NCBI GenBank assembly: GCA_026874595.1
Contig: CM049309.1
Coordinates: forward strand, 73,640,426 to 73,704,425
DNA from: Sipunculus nudus
Taxonomy: Eukaryota > Annelida > Sipuncula > Golfingiida > Sipunculidae
DNA: 64,000 bases
Direction of reading: 5' to 3'
Shown: positions 687 to 42,321 of the stretch, piece by piece
Layout: every line of letters begins with the position of its first letter
Numbering within the stretch: position 1 is the stretch's first letter
Made by a program: the position numbers and the translations under genes
The notes under the pieces: generated by a model
What the model was told of the DNA's origin: nothing
Seen by the model: only the letters and a program-made list of their open reading frames with translations
Database searches by the model: none

Positions 687-3600
687 ATGGCACCAGGGAC
701 ACACTGTGAAGAGGCCGGAGTTTCCGAGAAGACCTGGAAGGAATGTCAAGCCGGAACATCAGGTGGTATTATTCCTTTATCTAGGTTAACTAATGGCATA
801 GTTTTAGAATTGTATGTATTAAGGGAGGAGAAGTCTTTGTTGAAGGGGCTAGGTTGTCTGTGCAGTTATGACACCAGGAGTGTAGATCTTAGTAACTTCT
901 GCAGAAAGGTCAGGAAACTTTGTGAGCAAAGGAGAACACTGCTCAAGAATAGAAAGAGGGATGCGGGCAAACAGTTGATGGCATTTGAAACTGCTTTGTT
1001 CAGTTTCACAGGTGAGACAACAGTTGACACTGGCAGTGATGACTTTGTGAGAGAGCTGCAGTCTACCATCAGGCAGCAGAGGATAGAGATCGGCAGACTG
1101 AACGATGCACTGCATAAGGTTGAAGCTGAGCGGGATACGTACTTGGCTGGTTTCAAGGAGGTTTCCTCCAAGAACCATGCACTGGAGATTGAAATTGCTC
1201 GATTGAATGAGCGCTACAGTGCATCAGAGTCAGAGATGCAAAGACTTCAGGAGAGGTTTGCCCAGTGGAAGCCTCACAATGCAATTAGGAGAGAGAAGCG
1301 TCATGTGCTGAAGACAAGTCAGCTACAGGAGCAGGTCACCACCTTGACAGGACAGTGCCAGGAACAGGCCAAGTTGGTTAACACTCTGAGTGAACGAAAG
1401 AGGTGTCTTGAAGACCAGGTTGAAGAGGAAAGAAGGAAGAAGCGGAATTTACAGAAGCGGATTTGTAAGATATCAAGCAAGTCTAGCGGAGACAGCAGCC
1501 ACCTACAGCATCGAGTGACTGAGCTGAAGAAGGAGATACAGTTCCTGGAGAATTCTCAGTGTGAGGCAGAAGACAAGTTGGCAGAACTGTTGGATGATAC
1601 CAGGCATGTGTTTAAGCATAACAGGTATGAAGATAACGTCCGGTCCTGTTACATGGAGCTTAGAGCCATGGGTGTGTCTGCGCGTAACTGTCAGGGTATT
1701 GTGCAGTGTGTACTGAACACGTTCACCGATGTTCAGGTAGACAGACTTCCAGGTGAGGCGTTTGCCCGTCGCATGAGTTTGGAATGTCGGGGTCTTGCCT
1801 TGATGCATTTACGTGAAGTGATGGAGCAGACAGACAACCTTACTCTGCATTGTGATGGTACCACCAAATATTTTCATCATTATGGTGTGTATAATATTTC
1901 ACTTCCAGATGGCAGGACTCTGACGATGGGCATGCGAGATATGTGTGGTGGAGACAGTGAGGCGTATCTGCAGACCTTGAAGACCATTGTGCATGAGGTG
2001 GCAACCATCGGAGATTCTTCAGCGGAGGACAGACCGGATGTTCACAAGATAGTTATGCATGTGAAGAACACAATGAGTGATCGGCATATTGTCAACAAGA
2101 AGTTTAATAGTCTTCTGAAGGAGTACAGGGAGGAGATATTCCAGGAGCTGGCAAGTGTATATTCAGATCTCACTACTCAAGAGAAGAAGGCAGTCCTGAA
2201 CATGAACAACTTTTTCTGTGGACTTCATTTTTTGGTAGGTCTAGCTACGGCAGCAGAATCAGCTCTGAAGGTATGGGATAGTTTGGTTTTTGGTGGACAA
2301 AAGGTAGGAGCTGCAGCCCTCCCTGGGAGCTACACCAAGGCTGAGTCAGGGACTACACGACTGATCAGGACCGTCTGTAAAGCTGTACACGAGCGAGGAT
2401 GTCAGAAGTCGGGGATTGCTGGACAGTTCAAGTGTTTTATGGAGACAGAGCTGGGACTTCACCGGCTGCCTCTTGAGCAGTTCATCGGGAATAGATTTAA
2501 CATCATATTCCGAAATGGCGCAGGTGTCTATTTTCTGTGTGATACCCTGCGAGCTTTCTTTGATGAGCACAAGCATGACAACAAGCTGTTGAGAGCTGTT
2601 CATGCTGATTTGCAGGTTGAGCAGTTCATTGCTGGAGCCAGAGCCCTTGGAGTTGTCAGCAAAGTGATTACAGAGCCATTATGGAAGGCCATTGAGGAAC
2701 CAGGTCACATCAGTGGACTGAATGCAAGGTACCAGCGCTTGGTTTCGTGCTTAGAGAAGTGGATGGACGACCCATCTCCCCTGCTTACCATGTCAGATCT
2801 TCTGTTTGAAGACATCGAAGTCAAGAAGGACCAGGTGGCAGATTCACTGAAGAGGGACCATCCACGAACTGATGTCATGACCAGGCAGATACTTGAGCTT
2901 ATGCTGTCAAGTTTTTTGGCTGTTTGTAAGAACCAGTTGGCAGCACATCTTGCTGGTGGGGAGCATGCAGTTTTTTCCAAGGAGCTCTATGAGGAGACCA
3001 TCAGTGTGAAGAAGGACAACATTGCCCCTGAGCGTGATTTTGCATCCCTGGACCACAGCATCCTTGTTCGACCATCTCTCCACACTGTGAACTTTGAGGG
3101 AATGTTGATGTACAGAAACAACAAGGTAAGTATGTGGCTGAACAGTAAGTCAGAGACTGAGCGACAGGTATTGATGGCCGCCGTGAGGAAATGCGTTGAA
3201 ACCCAGCGCCATGACAACCTAGCTAGAGCAGCAGAGCATGCTAAGTTCATTTCCCACAAAAGGAAGGTTCAATTGCAGGAGAAAGAAGATCATGAACGCC
3301 GAGCCCGCGTGATCAAGGAGGATCTCTCTGTGAAGCTTACAGATGTTGGAGGCCTCTGGACCACAGCTGAAGCACTGGAGGAGCACTTGACTAAGTTGGA
3401 CTCCGATATACAGCAGCGCCGTGCCCTAGAGGTTCAAATCAAGTACCGCCGGCAAGTGTTACAGAGTCCCAACCCAGATGGTGTGCTCAACCTGTCTGCT
3501 GGAGGGTGTCGTCTGTCTGTTAGCAAGCTGAGGACCAACCTACAGAGAGTGATCGAGGCTGCACAGACCGAACATCAGTGTGTGCAAGATGAGACAGTTG

Positions 3601-4160
3601 ATGGCGTGGATGGCTTAGTGTCAGCTCTTGCTGATGATGCTGCTCTGCAAGTGGAAAAGACCAGATTATTATGTGGGAAGAACAGGAAACAGCTCAAGTC
3701 TGGTAGGAAATCCCCCATTCCACAGATCCAGTTTGCATCTGATCTGATTGGGAAGAGAGTTCGGCATTTGTGTGAAGAAGATGGCAAGGAAGAGTGGTTC
3801 ACAGGTTGGGTGGTTAGTATGGAGACCAGTACAGCTGGGCGGTCCCGTCGTTATGTCCATCAGATCCAGTATGATTGTGAACCAGGGAAGATGTATAGTT
3901 TTCCGCTGATGAGTGACCTCAGGAAAGGGGAGCTTGAATTACTTCAGCTTGAGTCTCAGCACCTGGTTGGGAAGAGTGTTAACCATAGGTTTGAAGATGA
4001 AGAGGGCAATACATACTGGTGCTCTGGAAAAGTAATGAAGGTTGACAACAAGGATACAGACAACCCACAATTTCAAGTTCAATATGAAGATCAGGATCTT
4101 GAATGGTATGCCCTGTTTGAAGACTATGCAGCTGGGGATCTCAGAGTTATAATAACTTGA
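687..4160 (+). CDS. hAT-like transposase-derived protein with coiled coil and two Spin/Ssty modules
   Basis: This is an intact 1157-residue ORF. The ATG at 687 has a good context (caccATGG) and an in-frame TGA lies 12 bases upstream, so the start is firm for this exon. Visible parts: basic, charged coiled coil at about 120-310; HCDGTTK with D390; SDRH with D465; C511-x2-H514; GNRFN with R603-F604; and PERDFASLD with E782. This order matches the D, D, C2H, R-W, E signature of hAT transposases. From memory, the D-to-D and D-to-E spacings (75 and 317) are near those of Hermes (about 68 and 324). A second helical region spans about 840-915. Two tandem Tudor-like repeats at about 1019-1087 and 1092-1155 resemble Spin/Ssty repeats of the methyl-lysine reader spindlin. 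No BED finger and no terminal inverted repeats were found. It could be a live transposase or a domesticated gene. The domain calls come from motif reading, not a search. Confidence 0.8.
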   Translation: MAPGTHCEEAGVSEKTWKECQAGTSGGIIPLSRLTNGIVLELYVLREEKSLLKGLGCLCSYDTRSVDLSNFCRKVRKLCEQRRTLLKNRKRDAGKQLMAFETALFSFTGETTVDTGSDDFVRELQSTIRQQRIEIGRLNDALHKVEAERDTYLAGFKEVSSKNHALEIEIARLNERYSASESEMQRLQERFAQWKPHNAIRREKRHVLKTSQLQEQVTTLTGQCQEQAKLVNTLSERKRCLEDQVEEERRKKRNLQKRICKISSKSSGDSSHLQHRVTELKKEIQFLENSQCEAEDKLAELLDDTRHVFKHNRYEDNVRSCYMELRAMGVSARNCQGIVQCVLNTFTDVQVDRLPGEAFARRMSLECRGLALMHLREVMEQTDNLTLHCDGTTKYFHHYGVYNISLPDGRTLTMGMRDMCGGDSEAYLQTLKTIVHEVATIGDSSAEDRPDVHKIVMHVKNTMSDRHIVNKKFNSLLKEYREEIFQELASVYSDLTTQEKKAVLNMNNFFCGLHFLVGLATAAESALKVWDSLVFGGQKVGAAALPGSYTKAESGTTRLIRTVCKAVHERGCQKSGIAGQFKCFMETELGLHRLPLEQFIGNRFNIIFRNGAGVYFLCDTLRAFFDEHKHDNKLLRAVHADLQVEQFIAGARALGVVSKVITEPLWKAIEEPGHISGLNARYQRLVSCLEKWMDDPSPLLTMSDLLFEDIEVKKDQVADSLKRDHPRTDVMTRQILELMLSSFLAVCKNQLAAHLAGGEHAVFSKELYEETISVKKDNIAPERDFASLDHSILVRPSLHTVNFEGMLMYRNNKVSMWLNSKSETERQVLMAAVRKCVETQRHDNLARAAEHAKFISHKRKVQLQEKEDHERRARVIKEDLSVKLTDVGGLWTTAEALEEHLTKLDSDIQQRRALEVQIKYRRQVLQSPNPDGVLNLSAGGCRLSVSKLRTNLQRVIEAAQTEHQCVQDETVDGVDGLVSALADDAALQVEKTRLLCGKNRKQLKSGRKSPIPQIQFASDLIGKRVRHLCEEDGKEEWFTGWVVSMETSTAGRSRRYVHQIQYDCEPGKMYSFPLMSDLRKGELELLQLESQHLVGKSVNHRFEDEEGNTYWCSGKVMKVDNKDTDNPQFQVQYEDQDLEWYALFEDYAAGDLRVIIT

Positions 4161-4353
4161 ATTCTTTTTTTCAGGTAATTGTTACTGTTATTTATATTGT
4201 TATTTATTTATACAACTTTGTTACTGTACATACTTGTTTTTACACTTTATATTGCTTTCACTTTATACATATAATTACTGCAGAGCCATCTTCCAACCCA
4301 CTCAACCATTTTTTACATGAACAAATATTTTAATTAATTAATGCTGAGAACTA

Positions 4354-4990
4354 TTGCAAAAATGGCCACCACAACCCACTGCAACAGCCATGCTGGGATT
4401 TAAACCCAGGTCACCTGGGGAGAGAGCCAAGCTTTTTACCACTCTACTGCCGAGGCCTACAGGAAAATCAGGACCCCAGTATACCATTCTGATGGATGGG
4501 CCACTTCAACCCACTGCCACAGCCATAAGGGGAATCAAACCTATGTCACCAGGGGAAGGAGGCGAGCTTTTTACCACTCCATGGCCAAGTCCTACAGGAA
4601 CATCAGGATCTCAGAATACCATTCTGATAGAATGGCCACTACAACCCACTACCACAGCCATATGGGGAATCAAAGCCAGGTCACCAGGGGAGAGAGTCGA
4701 GCTTTTTACCACTCCATGGCCAAGTCCTACAGGAACATCAGGACCTCAGAATATCACTCTGATAGAATGGCCACTACAACCCACTACCTCAGCCATATGG
4801 GGAATCAAACCCAGGTCACCAGGGGAGAGAGCCAAGCTTTTTACCACTCCATGGCCAAGTCCTACAGGAACATCAGGACCTCAGTATACCATTCTGATAG
4901 AATGGCCACTAAAGCCCACTACCACAGCCATATGGGGAATCAAACCCAGGTCACCAGAGGAGAGTCGAGCGTTCTACCACTATCATAGAT
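4354..4990 (-). repeat. Tandem array of a 135-bp tRNA-derived SINE unit
   Basis: About 4.7 head-to-tail copies with an exact 135-bp period; the GATAG/GATGG landmark recurs at 4491, 4626, 4761 and 4896. Read on the minus strand, each unit has a pol III A-box-like block (GGAGTGGTAAAAAGC) and, about 30 bases on, a B-box-like block such as GGTTTGATTCC. This is the layout of a tRNA-derived SINE head. Because 135 is divisible by 3 the array is open in two plus-strand frames, but that is an artefact. The copies are close to one another, so the amplification looks recent. Confidence 0.8.
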
Positions 4991-6533
4991 CTTATACTCG
5001 AGATATGCTCATTTGATATAATTGGTCTTTTCTTGTTATCAAAGCACAATTTCAAACAAGATGAGTACTTTTATATTAGTTTTTTTGTAGTAACTCAGTA
5101 AGGCATAGATGATTTATCAACCAACGGATTGGCAATCACTTGGCACCAGGTTTAGAATTAAAATTATGTTTTTATTCACGTCTTGTTGTTTCTTTTCAAA
5201 GAGAGTTATGCCATGGTAGGATGCATAAGAGAATGTAGCAATACATGTACATACAGTTTACATTTCAAACAACAAAGTACAACTTACCCCAGCTGTAATA
5301 TTAAATTAACAATAACACAAAATGCAAACAAATGTAAACCAGCCCTTTGTAATCTGCCAGTACATATGAGCATCATTCTGGAATGGTTGGCATCTAAACC
5401 TGGAACTGAGGGGCTTATAATCTGAAAAAAAACCAGAAATGCCAAAAAGGAATGGAAACTACAGGAACTGAAACACGTTGACACAGAACGTCACAAGTCT
5501 GTAGAATATGTGAAACGTCACAAGTCTGTAGAATATGTGATCTCAAACTTGTTATATGTATATAACAACAACTGAACTGGAAACAAATATAAACTGATGT
5601 CTGAACTGGACACTGGGTGAATAAAAGCCATACACAAACTATAAAGAGAACTTGGAACACTGGAACTAAAAGGATTCATGGATTTCTTCAAACATTTGCA
5701 ATTTTATAGAGGAAAATTTACATGGAGTCTTGTTAGGTGCATTCAAATAGGCAATTACATGATTTTTCACTTGGATCTAAGTGATACATGTGTTTGTTAT
5801 ATAATATAATATTACTTCCTCAGTGTATTTATATTGTTTCACTAGTTATCATTGCATTGGTAATTGATATGTGTTTAACATGTTCAGCATTTTACATTTT
5901 TATTCTATATGTGTTCCATATTCAACGTGCTTGCTCACTTATCCCTAACGAGGATCTGCTCAGCAGAGTTGCCTGTTCAGGTAGTTGCTCTCTCACTGCT
6001 ATGCAGTGCTGAGGGACATGGCGGTGCCACTACCTCATGGCGAGTTTGTCTAGTCAGGTCCATGTAGGATGAGTGTAGTAAATTTAGTATTTTGTTCATC
6101 TGAAACATCCCTAGCTGTATAGTAATGATGTACTGATGATGCTCAATGAGTTAAGTTGGAAAGAAACTAAAATATTTTTTTTCTTTTCTGTTTCAGGAGA
6201 CCCAGCCGAAAGTCAGCAGCAACTTTTGTTTCAACACGTCCAGTGCCATTTAAGTTACTGTATAACCTCATGATTTAATTTTACAGTTTTGTTGTCACAG
6301 TTGTATATTTTTTTTACTTTCCTGTTTATATTTATTAGATTTCTGGAGCCAACCTTTTATTTTCTTTTTCTCCCTTTTATTATTGTTTCATTATAATGAT
6401 TTGCACCTTTCGATTTCAAGTGGTCATTGGTGCATGTAAACTCTTCATTTGCTTCAGTTGGGGTAGGGTCAGCTGTAAGGGGTGTTGGGGAGGCTGAACC
6501 CTTTTATTATTTTCTTATTTATACATTTATTTG

Positions 6534-6538
<5 letters not shown>
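4991..6538. other. Noncoding DNA with a small direct duplication
   Basis: AT-rich, no recognisable exon apart from the possible terminal exon at 6197. A 26-base direct repeat containing CGTCACAAGTCTGTAGAATA occurs twice between about 5488 and 5540. A GC-richer patch at about 5930-6070 has no assignable function. Confidence 0.5.
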
Positions 6539-6579
<41 letters not shown>

Positions 6580-6594
6580 CACATGTGTGTGTGT
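6539..6594. repeat. (AT)n and (GT)n microsatellite
   Basis: A run of about 16 AT units is followed by short CA and GT repeats. Confidence 0.9.
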
Positions 6595-6771
6595 TAAGTG
6601 ATATGCATATAAATACATCATGGTCAGTCAGTGAATGGTTCTTTTCGGCACTTGATATTCACCGCATTCCTAGAAAGGACTTTTTGCTTTAAACTGCTAT
6701 ATTATTCCATTGAATTTGTACTTTTTTGCACCATGCATGCATCCCCTAACACCTTTTTTTATTGAAATAAA

Positions 6772-7580
6772 CAGCTTATTGAAACATGAGATTGACTTTC
6801 TTCAGTTTTTAATGGTTTCGCGTGGTTTGCCAGAGCTGCCTGTGATGACCCCTCTCCGCATCTGCAAAACTGAAGCTTTATTCAAATTAGAAGCTCCTCC
6901 CATTTAGACACCAAATAATTTTTACTGTTATTAGTATAACATTGACAAAATATATTGTCTTAATGTACATTTCATAGCTCTTACAGGATTTGAAAGAATT
7001 ATCCAAGTATCTTCAAATGCAAAAAAGTTAGAGACATCTGAAATATGCGAAAAATGCCTTATTTCAAGGGCTACCGCCCAAAATTTGACTAAGTCCTGAA
7101 TTTTTTTTTAAATTTTTTTTAATCTGACCATACAAAAATTTGAAGATAAACATGTATTTATTTCACATTATAATGAAATTTTATGAAAGTTACATGGAAT
7201 AAAAGATAAATTGTAATATATTGTACATTAAATTTTCAAAATATGGGAACCACAAAACCGGCCAGAGCCAATTTGCCCATGACAGGACAGGTGTGTCTCC
7301 CGGGGCCCATTTACCTGAAAACCTTAAAATGGCCATAACTTTGTAACCAATAAAGATAGAAACAAAATTCAAACAGATTATTGTATTATTTAGAGAGCTG
7401 CATCTGGGAAGTTGAAAAAAATAAGAGATTTGTGGATTTGAAATTTTAGTGATTCCCCCTACTCCCAGTCTCACTGACTCCACTGCCCATCACTCACCAG
7501 TGATCAAAGTATATTATCATCCTGCTATATTAATTATTAGATACTTGTTCAGAATTTGGCCTGCATGTCCACTTGGTTAG
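6772..7580. other. Noncoding intronic DNA
   Basis: AT-rich sequence without a supportable gene. The GC-richer part at about 7250-7500 gives a 97-codon minus-strand ORF with no recognisable domain; it may be an old repeat. Confidence 0.5.
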
Positions 7581-7790
7581 AACGGGTGTCACATAAACTG
7601 TTGTTTCCTAACAAAGGCAGATTTATCATAGTTTCCTGAGAAATTCCCATAAGGGCCATATTACAAATTTTGGCAGAACTATAGAAACCGGGCTTCAGCC
7701 TACTGCCGGTAAAACGGGTGTCGCATAATAAATTGTTTCCTGGGAAAGGCCGATACATATCATTTTCCTCAGAATTCCCGTATTTAATTT
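7581..7790. repeat. Diverged tandem duplication, period about 130 bp
   Basis: The block starting AACGGGTGTCACATAA at about 7580 recurs as AACGGGTGTCGCATAA near 7710. In both copies it is followed by TTGTTTCCT, a purine-rich run and a TTTCCT-GA-AATTCCC-like segment. Confidence 0.65.
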
Positions 7791-7810
7791 TGCTCATAGC
7801 TGGAGTTTAT

Positions 7811-7990
7811 TATATTAGAGGGGGAGGGGTCCGGGGAACCTGGGTTCCCCGTCTGAACGGGGGTGTGGGGGCGGAGCCCCCACCTAAAGCTTAATTTTCC
7901 TGTTAAAATAGTAAATGGTTTCCCATTTTCGCGATAGATGCCTCTTCAATCGCAGATATAAATGAACAAAACTTGCTCCTGCTGGTGTCT
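7811..7990. repeat. Short GC-rich interspersed repeat, copy 1
   Basis: It starts with GGGGGAGGGGTCCGGGGAAC, contains two near-palindromes (GGGGAACCTGGGTTCCCC and GTGGGGGCGGAGCCCCCAC), then an AT-rich tail with GGTTTCCCATTTTCGCGATA. A diverged second copy lies at 8265-8890, interrupted by an insertion. The family is not identified. Confidence 0.6.
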
Positions 7991-7993
7991 AGT

Positions 7994-8160
7994 CTTCACG
8001 GCTCACTTAGTAGCGTGTAGGGCTCCTAGTCCAGAGATCGTAGGTTCGATTCCCGATTCAGGCGACTTCTGATGCTTAGTAGTTGTTTATGTTAGAAGAG
8101 TTGAGTGTAGGGACATCTACAGGGAAAAGTAGGAGTTAAAATAGGGAATGAGAGGTGACA
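7994..8160 (+). repeat. tRNA-derived SINE fragment
   Basis: The head has an A-box-like block (GGCTCACTTAGTAGCG), an anticodon-arm-like segment (GGGCTCCTAGTCCAGAG) and a perfect B box, GGTTCGATTCC, at 8043-8053. The 5' end cannot pair with the 3' end as an acceptor stem, so it is a SINE or tRNA pseudogene, not a functional tRNA. The head resembles elongator tRNA-Met/Ile. Confidence 0.7.
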
Positions 8161-8264
8161 ATTTTATTTATATGTTCCTCAATACAAGCAAAGCCAGCGT
8201 TCTATAGTGGCTCCCAAATTTTTATTTAACCGTCTCATACTTGGACTGGAGTTCTTTAATTATA

Positions 8265-8890
8265 TTACAGGAGGAGGGGTCCAGGGAACCTAAGTTCCCT
8301 CCCAACTAGCAGGGTTTGCAGGTTTACCAAACACCCATGTATAACCCATGTTTTACCTGGGTAAAACCCAAGTAAATATACATTACCTACAGGTATAAGA
8401 CATATTTTACCCAGGTATTACCTAGGATTCCTTGGTTTTACCCATTATTCCTATTAATTTGAGTGATGTACTCTGCTGCAGTGCACAGCCAAACATGAGT
8501 GTGAGTGGTGACTAGCTCCTTGTAGACAGGGGTTTGCTTACATAAATAGTTGTGGATATAGCTCCTGCTGACCAATCAAAAAGAAACCAAGCTTTGGTTA
8601 TACTAGATAAAACTAAATGAATTTGGGTGAAAGCTTGGGTAAATAACCGGGCAAAACCTAGGGTAAAACACTTTTAACCCAGGTTTTACCCATTGGCTTT
8701 GGTAAATTAGGTTTTACTTGTCTCATATGCAATTTCTGCGTCTTATCAGGGGTGTGGGGGCAGAAGCTCCCAGCTTACATTAAATTTGTCTATTAAAATG
8801 CAAAATGGTTCCCCATTTTCATGATAGATGGCACTTCACTTGGAGCTTTAAATGAAAATAAATCACCCCTCCTGGTACTCATTAAATAAC
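8265..8890. repeat. Short GC-rich repeat, copy 2, split by an insertion
   Basis: The left part (8265-8302, GGAGGGGTCCAGGGAACC) and right part (about 8740-8890, GGGGTGTGGGGGCAGAAGCT onward) together match the repeat at 7811-7990. About 435 bp lie between them. Confidence 0.6.
8303..8739. mobile_element. MITE-like insertion with degenerate terminal inverted repeats
   Basis: Its limits come from comparison with the uninterrupted repeat copy at 7811. The ends are imperfect inverted repeats (left GGTTTACCAAACACCCATG; right CATTGGCTTTGGTAAATTAG). The interior is full of TTTTACCC/GGGTAAAA motifs in both orientations. No clear target duplication and no ORF are seen. The superfamily is not assigned. 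Confidence 0.5.
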
Positions 8891-8928
8891 TAGGTGATAA
8901 ACCCGGTATACTGGGCTTTTTACATGGT

Positions 8929-8946
8929 GGGGGGGGGGGGGGGGGG
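8929..8946. repeat. poly(G) tract
   Basis: About 17 G in a row, one of several long G or C runs in the window. Confidence 0.9.
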
Positions 8947-9590
8947 AGAGATATATGAACTGAGATGTGGAATGTTGGCACATTTTTCTTATTCCAAAAG
9001 TTAAAAGGAAATATAGGTTTTTCAATGGGATACTGTCTGATTAAGATATGTATAAACATTATTTAGATTTATTTTGTGAGGCAGTGCTAGTGGCAAGAAG
9101 TTCATTTGGTATGTTTACCTTGAAGACACGACACCCTGCTAGTTTGCTAGGTCTGTTGGCTGTCCGGCAAAACAAAATGTAACAACATTTGCTCTGGATT
9201 CCTCGCCAGGCTGAACATGCTCCCATTATTATGTTATAATCTATAGTCTATAATCTAAGCGTGATAAAAAAATATTTATTACGCTTTCAGTTTTGCCAAC
9301 ACTTGGCCCATTGTCACCAAACTCTCTCCACAAATAGATTGGATTGATTTTAAATTTATGAGTTTTTGCCAGGGATGTAATTTTAATAATTAAATTAATG
9401 TGTAGACTTTGGAGAGTGGCCTTACATTTTAAGCCAGGTGTCTCATTCCTTGCAACTTTTTGTTAGTCACTACTCACAAAAAAATTATAATTAGCAAATG
9501 GTCATAATTGTGTTTTATTAAATTTTGTTACACATACTTTTGTTTTATGTCTGAAAATTTTATGTTAGACATGCCAAATTTTCATTTCAG
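8947..9590. other. Noncoding intron sequence before AP3S exon 2
   Basis: AT-rich with no recognisable repeat, ending in the acceptor TTTCATTTCAG at 9580-9590. Confidence 0.5.
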
Positions 9591-12500
9591 CCTGAAGATA
9601 TACAACAACAAATAATCAGAGAAACATTTCATCTGGTTTCAAAGAGAGATGATAATGTCTGTAACTTCCTGGAGGGTGGAACGTATGTATCATTTTGTAT
9701 AATAACATGTACTGGTATAATCATCCTAGGAAATAGTGTCTGATATTAATTAGAGTAATTATGGGTTTTGAGGATACATTTTCTCATGACACAATACATA
9801 TCATAATACTTTGTTTACAATACGCTAAATGATATTAGATAAATTTAGATTCAAAGTTAATGTTCACCCTTGTTGATTACCAGATAACCAAACGTTGTTG
9901 AATAAAATTAATTTCCAAATTATAATAAACATTTATTTACAAACAATCAGCGTTTCACTTAATAAGCCTTACAAAGCATTAGAAACTATTCATAAATGAT
10001 GGACATGGATTTTCCTAATTCAACCAGGTATTGTTGATGTATTGATACAGGAAAATATAATGATTAGGCCATGAATTGTGATGGCTCTTAGAATCAATTC
10101 AGTTATCAAATCAATTCTTATTGAAGTAGTAAATTTCAGACTTTTTAAAAACAGGCAATTTGAGCAAAAAGGATGTTAGTAAATTTCAGTTGATAAAAGA
10201 AAAATTTAGCTCTCCCTTTGTTTGTCACCGCTATATATATGTTTCTTTGCAAGTGGATTGGACCACCAGCAAAAGTTCAAAGTATATTTAGGGCACAAAC
10301 AGGGTAAAGAACTTAGTCACTGCGAACTGCTCTGTCAGATTTGAGAGCTCAAAGTGGACTTTGGGATGTTACATGCAAAAAAAATAATAATCCAAATGAA
10401 TCAATTCAGAGGTTAATGATTGATAACAATTTAATCCAGGGCTTGCATTGGTTCTTTGATGCATTGTTAAACCCCTACTTATGATACTGATATGTTATCT
10501 GACTTGGTATAGCGATATATCAATGCACTGGTTAATTGTTACATCTCTAATACAAAAATCTGCATTTATAAATATGGTCTTTGATGTGTGGAAGTGTGGT
10601 TTGTTTCATTTGGCTATTTTATTATTACAGCAAATGCATTTTGACCCTGTCATAAAAAATAGTTTAATTGAATAAAATTAATGACTAAAAACTATAGGGC
10701 AATACTTAATTTAAACTCTTAACTTGAAGTTTACTCAGGAATGCTAACTGCATTTCTGTACATTTAAGATAGAATCAAGGATGGTTAAAAGTAGCAATTT
10801 ACATAAATAAATATTCAATAAAGCTGACCCTGAAGAGTAATTATTACCTTGCATAAATACAAATCTCCAGTGATAATTCTGGATGGTAATAAACGGCCTA
10901 ACTGTTTCAGTTGGTAGACATCATTTTTTGCTCAGCTGACTGAAAGTCATCTGAGCTATAGCGATCACTCTTTGTCCGTCGTCCGTCTGTCCGTCTGTCC
11001 GTCCGTTAACCAGGCACCAATCGTAACCGCTGAACCTAGAACCTTGTAACTTGGGATTCTGAGAGGTCCATGAAAAATCTCCTTGGAAACCAGAAATTAG
11101 GTCTCTGTTACCCATATCCTTCGAGCTATGGGGGGCTCCCAATAACCCCCCAGAATAATGGAAAATTTGATAAAAACAAACTGCAACATCTCAATAACTA
11201 CAACACTGATGGTCATGATTTTTGGCATACATATTGATCAAGAGGTGTTTCATCAGTACCTGCAGACTGGTGGTGCCACCTGTATTTTTTCAAAATTTCA
11301 CAATTTTTTTTTCTCTATTTTGGAGACCTTTCAGGATGTAGTTATCTGTCAACAGGGTACAAATCGTAAGGACTGGACCTAGAATCTTCATTGTTGACAC
11401 ACAGGGAGACCCATGATAAGGCTCCATGGACACCTGAAATTAGGTCTCTGTTACCCATATTCTTTGAGCTATGGCACTCCAAAGTACAGCTCAGAATAAT
11501 GGAAAATCTGATACAAAAGCTGAAGTATCTGAACAACTAATGCAGAGATCACCATAATTGTTTTCATGGATATTGATCATGGAGTGTTTCATCAGTTTCT
11601 GCAGACTGGTGGCACCACCTGTATTTGTTCGGGTTTTTTTACGAATTTTTTCTCTATTTTTGAGACCTTTAAAGTTATGAACATCTGTTAACAGGGCACA
11701 AATCATTAAAACTGGACCTAGAATCTTCATTCTTGACACACAGGGAGACCCATGAAAAGTCTCCATGGAAACCTGAAATTAGGTCTCTGTTACCCATATT
11801 CTTTAAGCTGTATGGCTCCAAATTACCCCCGAGAATAATGGAAAATTTGATACAAAAACTGCAGTATCTCAATAACTACAACACTGATGGTCATGATTTT
11901 CGGCATACATATTGATCATGACCTGTTCCATCAGTTTCTGCAGACTGGGTGCGCCACCTCTATTTTTTTCAAATTTTTACGATTTTTTTTCTCTTTTTTT
12001 GATACCTTTAAAGATGTGGTTATCTGTCAACAGGGTACAAATCGCAACAACTGGACCTAGAATCTTCATTCTTGTCATGCAAGAAGGCCCATGAAAAGTG
12101 CCTGTGGAAACTTAAAATTAGGTCTCTGTTACCCATATCCTTCAAGCTATAAGACTCCGAAGTATCCCTCAGAATAATGGACAATTTGATACAAAAGCTG
12201 AAGTATCTGAACAACTAATGGGGAGATCACCATGATTCTTTGCATGGATATTGACCATTAAGTGTTTTTATTAGTTTCTGCAGACTAGTGGAGCCACCTG
12301 TATTTTTGTATCCTCCAAAACAAAGTTTTGTGGATACTATGTTTTTGACCGGGTTCCTCCGCCGTTGCCGCGTTCATTTCCAGAGAGCTCCTCTGGGACT
12401 TGATTTTATCAGCTTTCCAAGCTTATATCTCGGGAAAGGTTTGACTGATCAGGAAATAAAATTTATACTAATGTAGCCCTTGGATAGCTCTATAACATAC

Positions 12501-15500
12501 ACAAAAAATGGTGGCGCCACCTGTAACCATGTTTGCACAGTGTCCATCTGTTCATCTGCCTTTGGTTAAAATCACTCATATCTCTGCAGTGAATTGACTA
12601 ATTCACCTAAAGTTCGGCATGCGTATACATCCTGGATAGCTTTCTTGATTTTATGATAGGTGGCGCCACCTTCATTCTCATTCACGCTGATGACATCCAA
12701 GCTCATATTTCGGGAACTGTTTGACCGATCGGGCCAAAATTTTGCATGTATATAGATCTAACATAGCTCTTTATCATACGCTAAACTGGTGGCGCCACCT
12801 GCAACCATTTTTGCACAGCATCTGTCTGTTTGTCTGCCGTGCAATAATGTCACTCATATCTCGGCAGTGGTTTGACATATCTGCCTAAAATTTTGCAGTT
12901 TTATACATCCTGGATAGCTTTCTTGATTTTATGACAGGTGGTACCACATACATTCACGTTCACGCTGATGACATCCAAGCTCATATCTCGGGAACTGTTT
13001 GACCTATCGGGCCAAAATTTTGCATGTGTATAGATCTAACATAGCACTTTATCATACACAAAACTGGTGGCACCACCTGCAACCATTTTTGCACATTTTG
13101 CACAGCGTCTGTCTGTTGGTCTGCTGTGGCCTAAAATCACTCATTTCTCTGAAGTGGTTTGACATAACTGCCTAAAATTTTGCAGGTTTATACATCCTGG
13201 ATAGCTTTCTTGATTTTATGACAGGTGGCGCCACCTACATTCTAGTTAACGCTGCACACATCCAAGCTAATATCTCAGGAACCATTTGACCGATTGGGCC
13301 AAAATTGTGCTTGTGTTTAGATCTCACATAGGTCTTTATCATACACAAAACTGCAACCATTTTTGCACAGCGTCTGTCTGTTTGTCTGCCGTGGGCTAAA
13401 ATCACTCGTATCCATGTAGTGGTTTGACTTTTCTGCCTAAAATTTTGCATATGTATACAACTTGGACAGCTTTCTGGATTTGTGGTAGGTTGCACAACCT
13501 ACATACACATTTAGGCTGCAGACATCCATGCTTATATGCAACATACCTCACTCTGTTTCCCCTTGCCACTCAATCCATGCCTCACTTCACTCTGATTTTG
13601 GCAGATACACGTAGTCACTTGTCGGCTACCCGTATTCTAGTTTTTTAAGTTAACACATTTTTTCTCTATTTTTCAGATATATAAATACAGACTAAATCTT
13701 GGCCTGTTGGTTAATCTGTTTGATGCTTCAGTTGAATGGGTATCTACCATTCTGATGATAAAATTTCCTTTTGTGAATCTCTTCCCAGTCAGCTGAGAGT
13801 CATAACCCATGGGTCACTTGTTTTATTATGTTTACTTTAATGCTTTTCATGTTCATTGTCTGTTTTATTGTTTTCTTTATTTGAATGATAAAATAAAGAC
13901 TTGAATATGGTTAAAGCTTAACACAATTGTGTATTATGTGAGTGCTGTATGTGATATGGTATATCTCTTTGTGTTACAGGCTGATTGGTGGGTCAGATTA
14001 TAAGCTGATATACAGGCATTATGCTACATTGTACTTCGTCTTTTGTGTGGACTCCTCAGAGAGTGAACTGGGCATACTGGATTTGATTCAGGTGAGTAAA
14101 TAGATGTTAACACTACAGGAGCTGAATATTTGTATCTGTGAAAACAAAGTTTTGTGGATACTATGTTTTTGACAGGGTTCCTTCACCACTGCGTTTGTTT
14201 ATTGAGAACTTGTCCGAGACCCTTGGACCAATTTTTCTGAAACTTGGCATAATTATTTGCTCACCTATGTAGTTTTGCCTAACAAAGACTGGTGGTGCCA
14301 CCTGCAGTCCTTATTCTGCAGTTTGAATCTGGGTGTCTTTTTGATAAAGGCCCATATCTTAGGAGTGGTTCAGTGTATTGAGCTGATCTTTTGCATGTCC
14401 TAGATTGTGGATCTCTCCAATTGGTGTCATCAAGGCTGGTGGTGCCTCCTACAATGATTTTTATGTGGTGTCCATCCATGTGTTTGCAATATTTTCATTT
14501 TAGTGATTGGTTTAACATATTGGGCTGAAATTGTGCATGTCGATAGATCTTGGATACCTCCATCTTGTATCCAAGACTGGTGGAACCATCTGCAATTTTT
14601 TTTCGTGTGCCTTCCATTCGTACTTTCGCCTTAAGTGAAACTTGATGATATCTTAAGAGTGGTACAATGTATTTGGTCTGAAATTTGGCATGTCCATCCA
14701 TCTTGGAGAATTTTAGCATAGACCAGACAAGTGGTGCCACTTACTTACCCCTTTTTGTACATTAATGCCCTTTTCTCAGGAGCAATTTGCCGTATTGGCC
14801 TGAAATTGTGCCTCTCCATAGATCTTGGAAACCTCCATCTCATACTCAATGCTGGTGGCACCATCTGTAATCTTTTTTGCATGGCGTCCAGGTAAAAATT
14901 TGCTTATACGTGACAGGGTTGGGTTTTAGGCTGCCCAAAACCTGTTTTCTGCAGGGCAGAGCCTAAAACCTGCCTTTAACTGCCTAAAATAGGTTATAAC
15001 CTGCCTAAAACTGCCTTTAACTGCCTAAAACTTTTATTACCCTCACCTATGACTTGCAGTTTAACTATGTTTTATAATTACACAGCTAAATGCATTACAG
15101 AAATATGCTCAACAAATTAAAAGTGAGGAACATTTAATTCAAACTAAAAAAATAAACCAAGATACAAACAAAAGCAACAAATGAATACAACACTACTTCA
15201 GGTTTTCCAAATGACAGTTTTAGCTTGTATACCAAAATCATGTTCTAAGGTCTCCCACCTCCATTACTGCCAATTTATAAATAAATGCTAAAACTGTGAG
15301 CTTATAATCAGATTCTTTGATTGGCTTTTTGATCATAAGGGATTAAAGTTTGTGATATATGCTTAAGAAGTTTTTCCCAAGTTCAAAAATTGTTCCATTT
15401 ACACTGATGAATATAGTCCTTTATACTGTAGTCTCACTAACATAACATGTATGTTTTGAATGCCTGTAGCTTCAAATGGCAAAAAGCAAAAGATTGATTT

Positions 15501-18500
15501 TATAAATAATAAAAATCTTTTATGCTAGCCATAAACTAAAATATGATAATATGATGAATATCTTTTACATTATCTGATAATGAACAAGAATTTCCACTAA
15601 TTGTTTATTTCCTTCGCTAGGTCATCCATTGTCAAATTTTTAGATTTTGTGCACATATTTATTGTCTATATAATGATGGAAATGCTCTGTAAACTGTACG
15701 ATAAGATTGTGAAAATGGACCCTCATGAAACATTATAATTTGTATAAAACTGAAAAATGCTAAAATATATTGCAGTGAATATGTTGCAAACCACAGAATA
15801 TTCATTATCATTTTTGGGCCATGTTCAACCTAAAGGCCTGAGAAACCCACATGTCATGGTCAGGGGCCCTGACTACAATACTCTGTAAAATGTTTGACTC
15901 AAGAACAGTTTTCAGGGCAATGGCTTTCATGGCATCATCCTCGTCATGTATGAAAGTTCACATGAACATCTACTAGTACACAGTAGTAGCCTAGTAGGAC
16001 TTGACCATTGGGTCTTATTACCCCATCACCTTGATAAATAGTAATTAACCTGTCTAATCAAGCATGCCTCTCCCCCCCCCCCCTGATACCCTACCTTACA
16101 CTAAGTTACAAGAGGTATATTGGAGGCTCTGTTACATAATTCCAGGTAGCAGGGCACTCATAAGAAACCCAAAGGGTCCTGATAATAACATACATTGGCC
16201 AATGAAACTGTGCCACACAAACATGGTCTCATGCTCAAGAAACCTATACAGGCTCTTTGAAGACTGCATGATGCCAGCCAACGGGAAATCATGCATTACT
16301 TGTAATACCTGAAACCTTCCAGAAGCCCAGCAAAGCCTTGTGACTGCATCACCCCAGCCAGTTTGGTAGTTTAATAGATCTTTAAGTAAAAAAATTAATC
16401 AAATATAGGTTTTAGGCACTTTTGGTGCCTAAAACCTGCCCAAAACCTGTTTTAGGCGGGGCAGTTTTAACCAGGTAAAAACCTATGGTTAAAACCTTCC
16501 TGCCTAAAACTTGCCAACCCTGATACGTGAGGAGTGGTTCAATGTATTGGTCTGAAATATGGGATGTTTATGTGGATAGCTTTGTGGTAGACCAGACAGG
16601 TGGCGCCATCTGCTGTTCTTTTTTTATCGAATACATCTATGTTCTTTATCTCAGTAGTGGATTGGTGTCTCAGCCTGAAATCTTGCATGGTGTATTAATC
16701 TGTAGATCTGTTTTTCGTGAAAATTGCATATATATATGAGAAGTTTAATTGGCATCACTGATGCCACTCATGTCAGGAACATTCCATGCCTTACTTTACC
16801 CATGCATCTGTGATATGGCAGAAACATGTAGTGCACATAGTGCATTTATTCCTTTGCCTAGCCAAACATTGTCTTTTATTAAAGAAAATGAACTGTACAC
16901 TTGTACTCTGCTTATTTCTTTCTGCAAGCAGATAACAATAGGCATTTTCTGAGAGTGCATAGCAGGGAATCAGTTCACATATATTTTTTCCAGAATCACA
17001 TATAATGATTCAGAGTTTATCATGTCCACTTGAAAGTTACATATTGGTTAACAAGGGCTGGATAGCTAGATGGAATAAATGTGTTTACAAGAATGTCAGT
17101 GCTGAATACCACAAGAACCAAAACCATATTTTGTTCATCAGATCTTTTTGGAATTTGCACATACATTTTCTCATGTTTTGTTACTGACTGTATACCAATA
17201 CAGGGTGACTACATTGAATCATCACATCATGTTTTGATTAAAATTTTCATCCTCAGCAGTTTGTATTTTTTATGAAAGAATCTAAGGACGGTTGTTGTCT
17301 TGTACATTTGTACCATTTAAATGTTATTTTTTGTAGGTCTTTGTGGAGACTTTAGACAAGTGCTTTGAAAATGTGTGTGAGCTAGACCTTATATTCCATG
17401 TTGACAAGGTAAGTTTTCAAATGTTTTATGTGTATCTGTGGAATAAAACAAAAATGTTAAGATAAGTGAGGAAAACCTTGTTGCACATGTTCAGAATTAG
17501 TGCAGACTTTTTATCTATAAATTTCAGGGTTTATATTACATCAACCAGTTGTTGATGATAACAATAATAACAGAACTAAATTTTTCCACATACAAGGTCT
17601 AAGAAATAGCATACCATGGCAGATCATGTGCTGTATCTAGCTAGAAGGTTTTGGACCTATATTATATATATCTGTATATTGTTATTTACCAAATCAATAA
17701 AGTTTTGCATGCATCTGTTTCTCCATAATCTCATTGGATTGAAATGGTTATCCCCTCTGCCACTAGGTGGCACTTTGGTCTGTGCAATAGTGGGTCTGAT
17801 TGATGCCTCTTTATAATTGTATCATCATTTTTTAAAGTGTTATGTTCTTTTTTAACAAAGATACACAATTTTAAGTGAACTATTCTATTCACTTGGCAAC
17901 TGTCTTTTTTATATGCCCACCTTTGACGGGACGTATTATGGTATACCCATTATCATTCCATTAACTTTTAGTGTCTCCACAATGACTTATTGGGGCATTG
18001 ATGGACTCCCCATAACTACTAACCAATAGGTTATTCCACCAGAGTTCGATTATGGGCTAAATCCACACATATTTAATAAGGTCAGTATTATGCCTGCATT
18101 ACATTCTCAGCAAAATTCATGCATATTTAATGAAGTCAGAGGTCGTTTGCATCATGCAGATATGGTGTATTATGGTCTTTGTTTTTAATTGTTTTTGACT
18201 GGGTTCCGCCGCCGCAGCTGCCGCGTTCGTTTCCGGGGAACTCCTCTGAGACTACTGGACCGTTTTTTCCGAAACTTACACCAATTATCTGGTCACATGT
18301 GAACTGGTGCCTTACCATTCGGCGTTGACCTCTGACCTTTCCTCTCTCCTGTGCGTCTGTTTTGACACATTAACCTGCATATCTTCGGACTTGTTTGACC
18401 AATCAAGAAAAAATTTTTTACACAAATGTAGCCCTTGAATAGCTTTATAACATACACAAAAATTGTGGCGCCACCTGCAGCCATTTTTACACAACGTCCA

Positions 18501-20229
18501 TCTGTTCATCTGCCTTGGGTTAAAAACACTCACATCTCTGCAGTGGTTTGACTAATTCACCTGAAATTTGGCATGCCTATACATTCTGGAAAGCTTTCTT
18601 GATTCTATGACAGGTAGCGCCACCTACATTCACTTTCATGCTGCAGACATCCATACTTATAAATCTGGTTTGATGTATCTCCCTGAAAATTTGCATGTGT
18701 TTAGATCTCACATAGCTCTTTATCATACAAGAAACTGGTGGCATCACCTGCAACCATTTTTGGACAGAGTCCATCTGTTTGTGGGATAAAATCACTCATA
18801 TCTCGGCAGTGGTTTGACTTTTCCACCTGAAATTTTGCATGTGTATACATCTTGGATAGTTTCTTGTTCAAATAACAGGTGGTGCCACCTTCAGTCATGT
18901 TTATGTGGCAGACATCCATGCTGATATGTAACACATCTAACTCTATTTCCCCTTGCCACTCAATCCATGCCTCACTTCACCTGTTCTACTCTGATTTTGG
19001 CAGATACACATAGTCGCTTGTTGACTACCCGTATTCTAGTTTTCCAATTAAACTTAAGTGAATACATGAAACACTGATAAAAAGTTGTTTTGTTGCCATA
19101 ATCTGATACCTGTTGTTTATGCAATTTAAGGCATTGACTTTTATCCAAGTTAAAGTGTAACCCGTCTTTCATGTTCTAAATCTCTGGACATCAATGATTT
19201 TGTTGATTCACAAAATCAATTTCTTGAATTCTAATTTCAAATTCACATTTACATTTTTCACTGATGTGTTTCAGGTTCATTACATCCTGGCTGAGTTGTG
19301 TATGGGAGGAATGGTGCTAGAGACCAACATGACAGAAATACTCACAAGGGCTGATGAACAGAATAAACTAGAGAAACAAGAGGTAAAGTGGCACATACAT
19401 GAATCAACTAAAAGTCTGTATGTGGAGTTGAGGGAAGCAAGAATTGTCCTTTAATTTTTTAATGATCTCTAGATTACTATTAAGAATGAATGTAAACTAT
19501 TGCTTCATGTAAGAGGGAGTCAAATTTCTGGTTTAGCATACTTTACCTGCCTGTAGAGATAAAATCCCACAATAGTGCACGACTTTTCACTACTACAAAT
19601 ATAGAGGCAGTCATATTGGCGGGTAAAGACCTAAATCATGAACATTTATATCTCAGATGATGTACATTTAACCACTAAGTGTGACAAACTTAGATTTTTC
19701 TTTCCTCTAAATGTCCGTTGTCAAATTTCCTTCTCAAGACAGGGGTTGCAAATGATGGTTCTAGTGACTGGGAATGCTTATGTACATACTAAGTGCTTAT
19801 TTGACAGAATTAAGACCATTTCTCAACATTTGATTTGAAAATTTTCATCTTAGGACTTCCATGATGTGTGCACATATTATATATTTATGGAATATATGTT
19901 TGGGTTAACCTGCATGCATTTCTTTTTTACTTATTTTATTTGTGTGACATATGGCTATTTCATTGTAATAGAGCTATAAATCAGTACCAGGGGGCATCTT
20001 TATACAGGAAGGACAGAGCTATGACAAACATTTCCTGTGTTGCAGCGTAGTTTGATCAGGACCCTGGTGGAGGTTGTGGTCTCTTTCTACTTTCTAATCT
20101 TTTTTTCAGGCTGGCATCGCAGCAGCACCAGCACGTGCAGTCTCAGCAGTCAAGGAGATGAACATTCCCCAGAAAATTAAAGACATCAAACTGCCAGACT
20201 TACCATCCATCAGTACACTCAAGTTCTGA
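9591..20229 (+). CDS. AP3S: AP-3 complex subunit sigma (exons 2-6; first exon not found)
   Basis: AP-3 sigma is the small subunit of the adaptor that sorts cargo from endosomes or the trans-Golgi to lysosome-related organelles. Five exons read as a near-perfect orthologue: 9591-9682 (PEDIQQQIIRETFHLVSKRD), 13980-14091 (LIGGSDYKLIYRHYATLYFV), 17337-17408 (VFVETLDKCFENVCELDLIF), 19275-19382 (ILAELCMGGMVLETNMTEIL) and 20110-20229, ending LPSISTLKF then TGA. All junctions have AG/GT sites and compatible phases. The 167 residues, plus the usual 23 or so encoded by exon 1 (MIKAI...), give about 190, as expected for the family. No MIKAI-like exon was found between 1 and 9590, so exon 1 is probably left of the window. 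Introns 2 and 3 are swollen by nested transposons. A single gene name covering vertebrate AP3S1 and AP3S2 is used. Confidence 0.96.
9683..10929. other. AP3S intron 2, unique part
   Basis: AT-rich intronic sequence without supportable genes or repeats. Confidence 0.6.
10930..13820 (+). mobile_element. Helitron-like non-autonomous element, family B (host copy of a nested insertion)
   Basis: It starts at CTCAGCTGACTGAAAGTC, has a (GTCC/GTCT)n stretch, then four diverged units of about 340 bp; the phrase TTAGGTCTCTGTTACCCATA recurs near 11100, 11445, 11787 and 12120. It ends TCAGCTGAG, a short hairpin (ACCCATGGGT), then CACTTG before a T run. The 5' end is thus repeated inverted just inside a 3' hairpin, as in Helentron/HINE elements. 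A minus-strand relative at 46970-47830 shares both ends. No ORF is present. Bases 12308-13640 are a family A element inserted into it. Confidence 0.7.
12308..13640 (+). mobile_element. Helitron-like non-autonomous element, family A, copy 1 (nested in family B)
   Basis: It begins GTATCCTCC with a 5' hairpin (TCCAAAACAAAGTTTTGTGGA region) and ends with a hairpin (GTAGTCACTTGTCGGCTAC) followed by CCGTATTCTAG. GCAGATAC just before that hairpin is an inverted match to the 5' end. The interior is an alternating tandem satellite with the palindrome GGTGGCGCCACC or variants at 12510, 12659, 12788, 12937, 13066 and 13224 (149/129-base spacing). It is flanked by T runs on both sides, indicating insertion between two Ts. 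Confidence 0.75.
14132..16850 (+). mobile_element. Helitron-like family A, diverged copy 2, split by a hAT element
   Basis: It starts GTATCTGTGAAAACAAAGTT after a T run, just downstream of the donor of AP3S exon 3. Satellite units with GGTGGTGCCACC-like centres lie near 14285, 14437, 14580, 14731 and 14852, then again near 16600 after the hAT insertion. The 3' end is degraded: only a distant relative of the family A tail is recognisable near 16780-16845. It looks older than copy 1. Confidence 0.65.
14914..16522. mobile_element. Non-autonomous hAT element, 1609 bp
   Basis: The ends are inverted repeats (left CAGGGTTGGGTTTTAGGC; right GCCTAAAACTTGCCAACCCTG read in part as its complement). It is flanked by an exact 8-bp target duplication, ATACGTGA, at 14906-14913 and 16523-16530. 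The CAGGG start and the 8-bp duplication fit the hAT superfamily. Subterminal regions are rich in GCCTAAAAC motifs in both orientations, likely transposase-binding repeats. There is no transposase ORF. Confidence 0.9.
16851..17336. other. AP3S intron 3, unique part
   Basis: AT-rich intronic sequence ending in the acceptor TTTTTTGTAG at 17336. No other feature is supported. Confidence 0.6.
17409..17907. other. AP3S intron 4, unique part
   Basis: No gene or clear repeat is seen. Confidence 0.6.
17908..18189 (+). repeat. Fragment of another interspersed repeat
   Basis: A block beginning TATGCCCACCTTTGACGGGA abuts the truncated family A element. It resembles the 5' end of a Helitron-like family by general style, but no second copy is present in the window, so this is a weak call. 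Confidence 0.35.
18190..19039 (+). mobile_element. Helitron-like family A, copy 3, 5'-truncated
   Basis: The 5' hairpin is missing; it starts at GTTTTTGACTGGGTTCCGCC. Satellite centres lie near 18464, 18612, 18736 and 18878. The 3' end is complete: GGCAGATAC, a hairpin (GTCGCTTGTTGAC) and CCCGTATTCTAG, followed by T. It lies in AP3S intron 4. Confidence 0.75.
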
Positions 20230-40561: not shown

Positions 40562-42321
40562 CAGGGCCTGCAAGAATGAAACCCATGTTCAATAATGTGC
40601 TAGTGTATATCAGGCCCTGCAAGTATGAAACCCATGTTCAATGATGTGTTAGTGTATATCAGGGCCTGCAAGTATGAAACCCATGTACAATAATGTGCTA
40701 GTGTGTATCAGGCCCCTGTGTAAGTTTGAAACTCAACTACAATAGTGTGCTAGTGTGTATCAGGCCCTGTAGGTATGAAACATGTTCAATAGTCTGCTAG
40801 TGCTAGTGTGTATCAGGCCCTATAGGTATGAAACACATGTTCAATAGTCTGCTTGTGCTAGTGTGTATCAGGCCATGCAAGTATAAAACATGTTCAATAG
40901 TCTGCTAGTGCTAGTGTGTATCAGGCCATGCAAGTATAAAACATGTTCAGTAGTCTGCTAGTGCTAGTGTGTATCAGGTCATGCAAGTATAAAACATGTT
41001 CAATAGTTTGCTAGTGCTAGTGTGTGTCAGGCCATGCAAGTATAAAACATGTTCAATAGTCGGCTAGTGGTAGTGTGTATCAGACCATGCAAGTATAAAA
41101 CATGTTCAATAGTCTGCTAGTGCTAGTGTGTATCAGGCCATGCAAGTATAAAACATGTTCAATAGTCTTCTAGTGCTAGTGTGTATCAGGCCATGCAAGT
41201 ATAAAACATGTTCAGTAGTCTGCTAGTGTGTATCAGGCCATGCAAGTATAAAACATGTTCAATAGTCTGCTAGTTCTAGTGTGTATCAGGCCATGCAAGT
41301 ATAAAACATGTTCAATAGTCTGCTAGTGCTAGTAAGTATCAGGCCATGCAAGTATAAAAAAATGTTCAATAGTCTGCTAGAGCTAGTGTGTATCAGGCCA
41401 TGCAAGTATAAAACATGTTCAATAGTCTGCTAGTGTGTATCAGGCCATGCACGTATAAAACATGTTCAATAGTCTGCTAGTTCTAGTGTGTATAAAGGCC
41501 ATGCAAGTATAAAACATGTTCAATAGTCTGCTTGTGCTAGTGTGTATCAGGCCATGCAAGTATAAAACATGTTCAATAGTTTGCTAGTGCTAGTGTGTGT
41601 CAGGCCATGCAAGTATAAAACATGTTCAATAGTCTGCTAGACCTAGTGTGTATCAGGCCATGCAAGTATAAAACATGTTCAATAGTCTGCTAGTGCTAGT
41701 GTGTATCAGGCCATGCAAGTATAAAACATGTTCAATAGTCTGCTAGTGCTAGTGTGTATCAGGCCATGCAAGTATAAAACATGTTCAATAGTCTGCTATT
41801 TCTAGTGTGTATCAGGCCATGCAAGTATAAAACATGTTTAATAGTCTGCTAGTGCTAGGGTGTATCAGGCCATGCAAGTATAAAACATGTTCACTAGTCT
41901 GCTAGTGCTAGGGTGTAGCAGGTCCTGTAGGTATGAAAAGTGTATAAAAGGATTCTAATGCTAGTGGGCATCGCCTCCTATAAGTATGCAACACATGTTC
42001 AATAGTGTGCTAGTGCTAGTGTGTCACTTTCAGGCCTTGTAAGTGGGTAACACATGTTCTGTAGTGTGCTAGTGCAAGCGTGTATCAGTCCCTGCAAGTA
42101 TGAAACACATGTTCAATAGTATGCTAGTGTTAGTGTGTATCACAGTATCAGGCCATGTACTGTAATGTGCTAGTGTATATCAGGCCCTGTAAGTATGAAA
42201 CACATGTACAGTAATGTGCTAGTGTGTATCAGGCCATGCAAGTGTAAAACACATGGTCAGTAGTGTGCTAGTGCTAGTGGGCATCAGGCCCTGCAAGTAT
42301 GAAACACATATGATAGTGTGC
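40562..42321. repeat. 53-bp minisatellite array
   Basis: Roughly 30 copies of a unit containing TATCAGGCCATGCAAGTATA and ATGTTCAATAGTCTGCTAGT. The main period is 53 bp, with shorter 47-bp versions lacking one GTGCTA. The edges (40.5-40.8 kb and 41.9-42.3 kb) are more diverged than the centre, as expected for unequal exchange. A detached piece follows the hAT element at 44419. Confidence 0.95.

What the first reader, a model, noticed from the sequence alone, without database searches (positions are those of the whole stretch)
687..4160. hAT-type transposase core fused to a coiled coil and paired Spin/Ssty modules in one intact ORF
The protein shows D390, D465, C511-x2-H514, R603-F604 and E782 (in PERDF) in the order and near the spacing of hAT transposases. 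The usual BED finger is replaced by a long coiled coil, and two Tudor-like repeats of the spindlin kind follow at the C-terminus. A methyl-lysine reader on a transposase could direct insertion to marked chromatin, or mark a domesticated chromatin protein. I do not recall this architecture being described.
Basis: partly seen in the sequence, partly recalled or inferred. Interest (0 to 1): 0.75.

Follow-up and report, generated by a model that had tools for sequence, protein, structure and literature searches.

The report
Possible transposase with spindlin-type chromatin reader
A single intact gene, probably of an animal, encodes a long protein with a coiled coil, a possible jumping-gene enzyme core that could not be confirmed, and two spindlin-like modules of the kind that can bind marked histones.

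Summary
Heptad periodicity supports a coiled coil. The C-terminal 146 residues match spindlins (best E 4.3e-7), and each repeat matches alone.

The hAT claim is only weakly supported. No Pfam family passed its cut-off and none listed was hAT. No transposase appeared in the PDB by sequence. Two AlphaFold jobs without relatives failed (mean pLDDT 40.2 and 36.3). A recalled hAT consensus fits best at E782, but the D390 and D465-CxxH blocks do no better than chance, and the reversed core scores higher for three of four blocks. No relatives, second copy or convincing element ends were found, in collections without animal genomes and with 686 upstream bases.

Best reading: a probably transposase-derived protein tethered to chromatin by a double spindlin module. 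Whether it is mobile, domesticated or no transposase at all is undecided.

The parts
687..4160 (+). intact ORF, 1157 aa, start in the context caccATGG
1038..1619 (+). coiled-coil region, residues about 118-311
   Evidence: heptad periodicity 118-176, 196-263, 271-311: 1, 0, 0 of 1000 shuffles; 181-263 as a whole 23 of 1000; long helices in a weak model
1854..1856 (+). D390, proposed first catalytic aspartate (LTLHCDGTT)
   Evidence: position confirmed; role inferred; hAT consensus block for this region not above chance
2079..2081 (+). D465, proposed second catalytic aspartate (KNTMSDRH); D494 is an alternative at hAT-like distance from CxxH
   Evidence: position confirmed; role inferred; consensus block not above chance and pairs with D494
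2217..2228 (+). C511-x2-H514 motif (FFCGLHFL)
   Evidence: position confirmed; CxxH is shared by several transposase superfamilies (PMC4763223 passages)
2493..2498 (+). R603-F604, proposed counterpart of the hAT RW motif
   Evidence: recalled RW consensus aligns at 585-605: 5 of 1000 shuffles of region 570-640, but 162 of 1000 shuffles of the core 310-880
3030..3032 (+). E782 (APERDFAS), proposed catalytic glutamate in a hAT-like stretch, residues about 766-812
   Evidence: recalled hAT consensus (matches PF05699 at 2.7e-23) aligns best here of the whole protein: 52 and 49 of 500 whole-protein shuffles, 50 of 1000 core shuffles, 5 of 500 and 12 of 1000 region shuffles
3717..3944 (+). Spin/Ssty-like repeat 1, residues 1011-1086
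   Evidence: phmmer, best to the second repeat of Spindlin-1, E 5.5e-4
3945..4157 (+). Spin/Ssty-like repeat 2, residues 1087-1157
   Evidence: phmmer, best to the second repeat of Spindlin-4, E 7.3e-7

Best explanation
This is most likely a transposase-derived protein of an animal. It would have an N-terminal coiled coil for self-association, a divergent DDE core of the broad hAT-like kind (D390, D465 or D494, CxxH, RF, E782), and a C-terminal pair of spindlin-type Tudor repeats that bind methylated histone H3. Shown here: the intact ORF, the coiled coil (by periodicity) and the spindlin relationship. Inferred: the animal source, the DDE core, histone binding, chromatin targeting and any catalysis. 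Rivals 1 and 3 below are narrower forms of this reading; rival 2 excludes it.
For: Intact 1157-aa ORF. Spindlin matches over both repeats. Coiled-coil periodicity. Named residues present in the stated order. The best placement of a hAT C-terminal consensus in the whole protein puts E782 on the hAT glutamate (SERVFS against PERDFA) and runs on for some 30 residues (50 of 1000 core shuffles). The four blocks chained in order score 115 in the core, reached by 5 of 200 core shuffles. Both weak models show two strands at about 400-416, after D390, as an RNase H hairpin would have (pLDDT under 50).
Against: No transposase family was listed for the core, and no transposase in the PDB at E up to 10. 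The D390 and D465-CxxH blocks do no better than chance, and the reversed core outscores the real one for three of four blocks. The reversed full protein scores 150 against 115 in the ordered-chain test. No usable fold. No element ends clearly beyond chance, no second copy in the window. In repeat 2, two of four spindlin cage positions (recalled) do not align to an aromatic residue.
Confidence: 0.5

Rival explanations
1. A domesticated, no longer mobile host gene (a narrower form of the best explanation): a former transposase that kept its fold and carries spindlin repeats, now acting as a chromatin-bound regulator.
For: One copy in 64 kb, no element ends clearly beyond chance, ORF intact, a possible splice acceptor at 596-598 upstream and a good start context.
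Against: The proposed acidic residues are present, which domesticated transposases often lose (recalled). The left flank is only 686 bases, so an end may lie outside the window. Copy number in the genome is unknown.
Confidence: 0.25
2. An ordinary host chromatin protein never derived from a transposase: coiled coil plus spindlin repeats, with the D, D, CxxH and E residues a coincidence.
For: No transposase family or structure was matched; two of four hAT blocks are at chance and the reversed core scores higher for three of four.
Against: The hAT C-terminal consensus fits best exactly at E782, and the motif order is that of hAT.
Confidence: 0.3
3. A DDE transposase of another superfamily that shares the D, D, CxxH, aromatic, E plan (MULE, KDZ or a not yet named animal group) rather than hAT (a narrower form of the best explanation).
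For: CxxH is shared by several superfamilies (PMC4763223 passages; PMC5225508 passages). PF05699 was not listed for this protein. D465 to H514 is 49 residues, longer than in Hermes or Muta1 (Hermes D248 recalled).
Against: The E782 region fits a hAT consensus; no other superfamily was tested in the same way, so the comparison is one-sided.
Confidence: 0.25

Closest known systems
Spindlin family (SPIN1, SPIN3, SPIN4; Pfam Spin/Ssty PF02513)
   Same: Both C-terminal repeats match spindlins, each best to the second spindlin repeat. In repeat 2, F1102 and Y1133 align to positions of the methyl-lysine cage (cage positions recalled).
   Different: Two repeats instead of three (three recalled), behind about 1010 other residues. 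W1111 is one column off the cage tryptophan and E1139 sits at the last cage position, beside W1140 and Y1141. Below Pfam's gathering score.
hAT transposases (Hermes, Kat1)
   Same: Order D, D, CxxH, R-aromatic, E; a hAT-like PERDFA stretch around E782.
   Different: PF05699 not listed and no PDB match by sequence. No BED finger listed by Pfam. Larger D465-CxxH gap.
Chromodomain or Tudor domain on retrotransposon integrase (Gypsy-10_Ec32 and chromodomain Gypsy families of Ectocarpus, PMC12477816 passages)
   Same: A C-terminal methyl-histone reader on a mobile-element protein.
SETMAR/Metnase (SET domain plus transposase; abstract start in a search listing only)
   Same: A chromatin domain joined to a transposase in one protein.
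   Different: A methyltransferase (writer) rather than a reader.

Membership tests
Spindlin / Spin-Ssty | sequence homology over Tudor-like repeats | tested here: met
   E 4.3e-7 for both repeats; 5.5e-4 and 7.3e-7 separately; Pfam PF02513 only sub-threshold (E 0.0093, 16.2 bits against 25)
Spindlin / Spin-Ssty | three tandem repeats (recalled) | tested here: not met
   two repeats up to the stop codon; the joint alignment covers chain residues 7-146 of 216
Spindlin / Spin-Ssty | aromatic cage for methyl-lysine | tested here: inconclusive
   repeat 2: F1102 and Y1133 aligned, W1111 one column off, E1139 at the fourth position (cage positions recalled)
hAT transposase | RNase H fold carrying D, D, E | tested here: inconclusive
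   residues present; models show no such fold but are unusable, mean pLDDT 40.2 (whole protein) and 36.3 (residues 356-538)
hAT transposase | C-terminal dimerisation region PF05699 | tested here: not met
   not listed by Pfam at E up to 1 (full length) or up to 10 (pieces); HMMER's filters drop most weak matches. A recalled consensus fits best at E782, 50 of 1000 core shuffles
hAT transposase | BED zinc finger near the N-terminus | tested here: not met
   no BED family listed for the full length or the N-terminal pieces (for the coiled-coil piece the best 25 of 45 families were shown)
hAT transposase | 8-bp target duplication and terminal inverted repeats | tested here: inconclusive
   no pair with an 8-bp duplication between 1-686 and 4161-9000; the left end may lie outside the window
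hAT transposase | conservation of the triad in relatives; multiple copies | not testable with these tools
   no animal genomes in the collections searched; no relatives there
KDZ, MULE | family profiles and termini | not tested
   no such family was listed for the core by Pfam; no directed comparison made

The most novel reading that the evidence does not exclude
A DNA transposon lineage of animals whose transposase carries a C-terminal double spindlin-type reader. It would be the DNA-transposon counterpart of chromodomain integrases.
Probability: 0.28. Interest if true: 0.75.

Novelty: new variant of a known kind. Interest (0 to 1): 0.45.

Why it matters
A single protein joining a transposase core to a spindlin-type reader would make reader-guided insertion of a DNA transposon directly testable. 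A 2025 study states, to its authors' knowledge, that a Tudor-bearing Gypsy element was the first TE reported with a Tudor domain (PMC12477816, passages). If the core proves not to be a transposase, what remains is an unclassified spindlin-repeat protein, of modest interest.

Tried and rejected
Relatives: peptide patterns in viral contigs gave 9 and 8 pattern matches, and in genome contigs 6 and 71; no match was confirmed as a relative by tblastn. A degenerate DNA pattern in viral contigs gave 0. The collections searched hold bacteria, archaea, viruses and plasmids, so the absence says little about animals.

Fold: the whole protein and residues 356-538 were predicted from the single sequence, both too poor for a fold search, so none was run.

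hAT consensus tests: I wrote four hAT consensus blocks from memory. The E block matches PF05699 at 2.7e-23 and Hermes at 8.4e-16. The joined D1 and D2-CxxH blocks match Hermes at 6.5e-8. In Pfam the D2-CxxH block matched only DUF659, weakly (E 0.017), and the D1 and RW blocks matched nothing; the RW block was not checked against Hermes. Against this protein, whole-length shuffles at or above the observed score were 207, 372, 181 and 49 of 500 for D1, D2-CxxH, RW and E. Core shuffles were 182, 959, 162 and 50 of 1000; shuffled consensus against the real core 216, 962, 209 and 75 of 1000. Within the predicted regions the shuffles were 72, 464, 5 and 12 of 1000. Reversed-core scores were 39, 47, 32 and 26 against 31, 21, 30 and 36. 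The best D1 placement was at 540-550, not at D390. I therefore do not claim hAT membership.

Termini: the scan (15-base ends, at least 12 matching, exact duplications of 2-10 bases; controls were 20 simple base shuffles) gave 10 pairs of 12 matches with 2-base duplications (9.8 expected), 7 with 3 bases (2.65), 1 with 5 bases (0.4), and 1 of 13 matches with 3 bases (0.2); none with 8 bases, and a separate scan for CAG/TAG...CTG/CTA ends with 8-bp duplications printed nothing. In such AT-rich flanks I regard these as chance, but the 3-base excess was not followed up.

No spindlin-type domain on a transposase appeared in the titles and abstract starts listed; the lists were capped (for example 20 of 134, 20 of 168, 12 of 1,791). 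I saw passages of PMC4763223, PMC5225508, PMC10368747 and PMC12477816, a term search without hits in PMC12062965, and the outline and abstract of PMC12730594. Two papers looked up by id were not held.

Full report
What is there. The ORF at 687-4160 on the + strand is open from ATG to TGA for 1157 codons. The chance of that many open codons is about 10^-30 even at the ORF's own composition. GC is 0.55, 0.37 and 0.51 at the three codon positions, against 0.265, 0.246 and 0.339 in three flanking stretches. A possible splice acceptor lies at 596-598, the start codon lies in caccATGG, and the first AATAAA downstream is at 5620, with ATTAAA at 5157 and 5300. So this is very likely a real gene. That the source is an animal is inferred from the spindlin relationship and the gene-poor, repeat-rich window; no whole genome is held for it.

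The C-terminus. Residues 1012-1157 match spindlin-4, -3 and -1 in the PDB (best E 4.3e-7). The two repeats match separately, best 5.5e-4 and 7.3e-7, each best to the second spindlin repeat. They also resemble each other (score 68; 0 of 1000 shuffles). Pfam lists Agenet (E 4.3e-5), a MORC2 chromo-like domain (E 0.0008), Spin-Ssty (E 0.0093) and PTM/DIR17 Tudor (E 0.0097) there, all below their cut-offs. Spindlin's second repeat reads H3K4me3 through an aromatic cage (recalled). In repeat 2, F1102 and Y1133 align with cage positions, W1111 is one column off, and E1139 stands at the fourth position beside W1140 and Y1141. Binding is plausible, not shown.

The coiled coil. Heptad periodicity is strong in 118-176, 196-263 and 271-311 (1, 0 and 0 of 1000 shuffles), weaker in 181-263 as a whole (23 of 1000) and in 896-921 (31 of 1000), and absent in 823-880 (496 of 1000). 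The bounds were taken from helices of the weak model. No BED finger was listed by Pfam.

The middle. Whether they make a transposase is the open question. Pfam named no transposase for the full length, the core or its pieces, and PDB phmmer gave only three weak hits, E 0.029 to 0.28, to eEF1 epsilon-1. Two AlphaFold jobs without relatives gave mean pLDDT 40.2 and 36.3. Both show strands at about 400-416, as expected after a first RNase H strand, and no RNase H fold otherwise, with very low confidence.

Motif tests. Whole-protein shuffles reach that score in 52 and 49 of 500, core shuffles in 50 of 1000, region shuffles in 12 of 1000. The RW consensus lands at 585-605, including R603-F604: 5 of 1000 in its region but 162 of 1000 in the core. 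The D1 block does not find D390, and the D2-CxxH block is below the average of shuffles. The ordered chain scores 115, reached by 5 of 200 core shuffles, but the reversed full protein scores 150, so I give this little weight. The gap from D465 to H514 is 49 residues, against 24 in Muta1 (PMC5225508 passages) and 20 in Hermes (H268 from the same passages, D248 recalled).

Mobility. No inverted ends with 8-bp duplications were found between 1-686 and 4161-9000; a few pairs with 3-base duplications exceed the shuffles slightly (7 against 2.65). The protein has no second copy in the window, and neither the ORF nor the left flank has DNA repeats elsewhere in it. As the window starts 686 bases before the ORF, an end could lie outside. 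No relatives were found in the collections searched, which hold no animal genomes. I have a vague memory of animal proteins with a similar NNFFCGLH stretch; this comes from no call and carries no weight here.

Judgement. The double spindlin module and coiled coil stand. The transposase core is plausible, about 0.5 to 0.6 in my estimate for any DDE kind, and hAT membership is not established. As precedent, a reader at the C-terminus of an integrase is known from chromodomain and Tudor Gypsy elements; the authors of PMC12477816 (passages) call theirs, to their knowledge, the first TE with a Tudor domain. My 9 paper searches, with capped lists, showed no spindlin-transposase fusion. If the core is confirmed this would be a new variant of a known kind.

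Noticed in passing
window 4361-4964: A 135-bp unit tandemly repeated 4.5 times just downstream of the ORF. One unit has a sub-threshold Rfam tRNA match on the reverse strand at 4393-4448 (19 bits against a gathering score of 29), other units weak SCARNA6 matches (best E 0.036, 15.5 bits against 68); ARAGORN found no tRNA in the window. A tRNA-derived repeat is possible, not shown.
   Followed up: partly
window 12416-13644, 18214-19043, 52400-53536: A repeat with a 278-279 bp unit, in tandem at 12.5 and 52.6 kb and related to a stretch at 18.2 kb (about 75-84% identical).
   Followed up: no
window 10923-12307 and 47129-47836: A 339-bp tandem repeat with related copies in inverted orientation.
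   Followed up: no
window 49092-49776 and 56570-57268: Inverted pair of about 700 bp, 89% identical: possible transposable element copies.
   Followed up: no
window 40561-42343: A 53-bp satellite array, about 26 copies or more.
   Followed up: no
window 1-64000: CpG is depleted (observed/expected 0.273; ORF 0.394), which suggests DNA methylation in the source genome.
   Followed up: no
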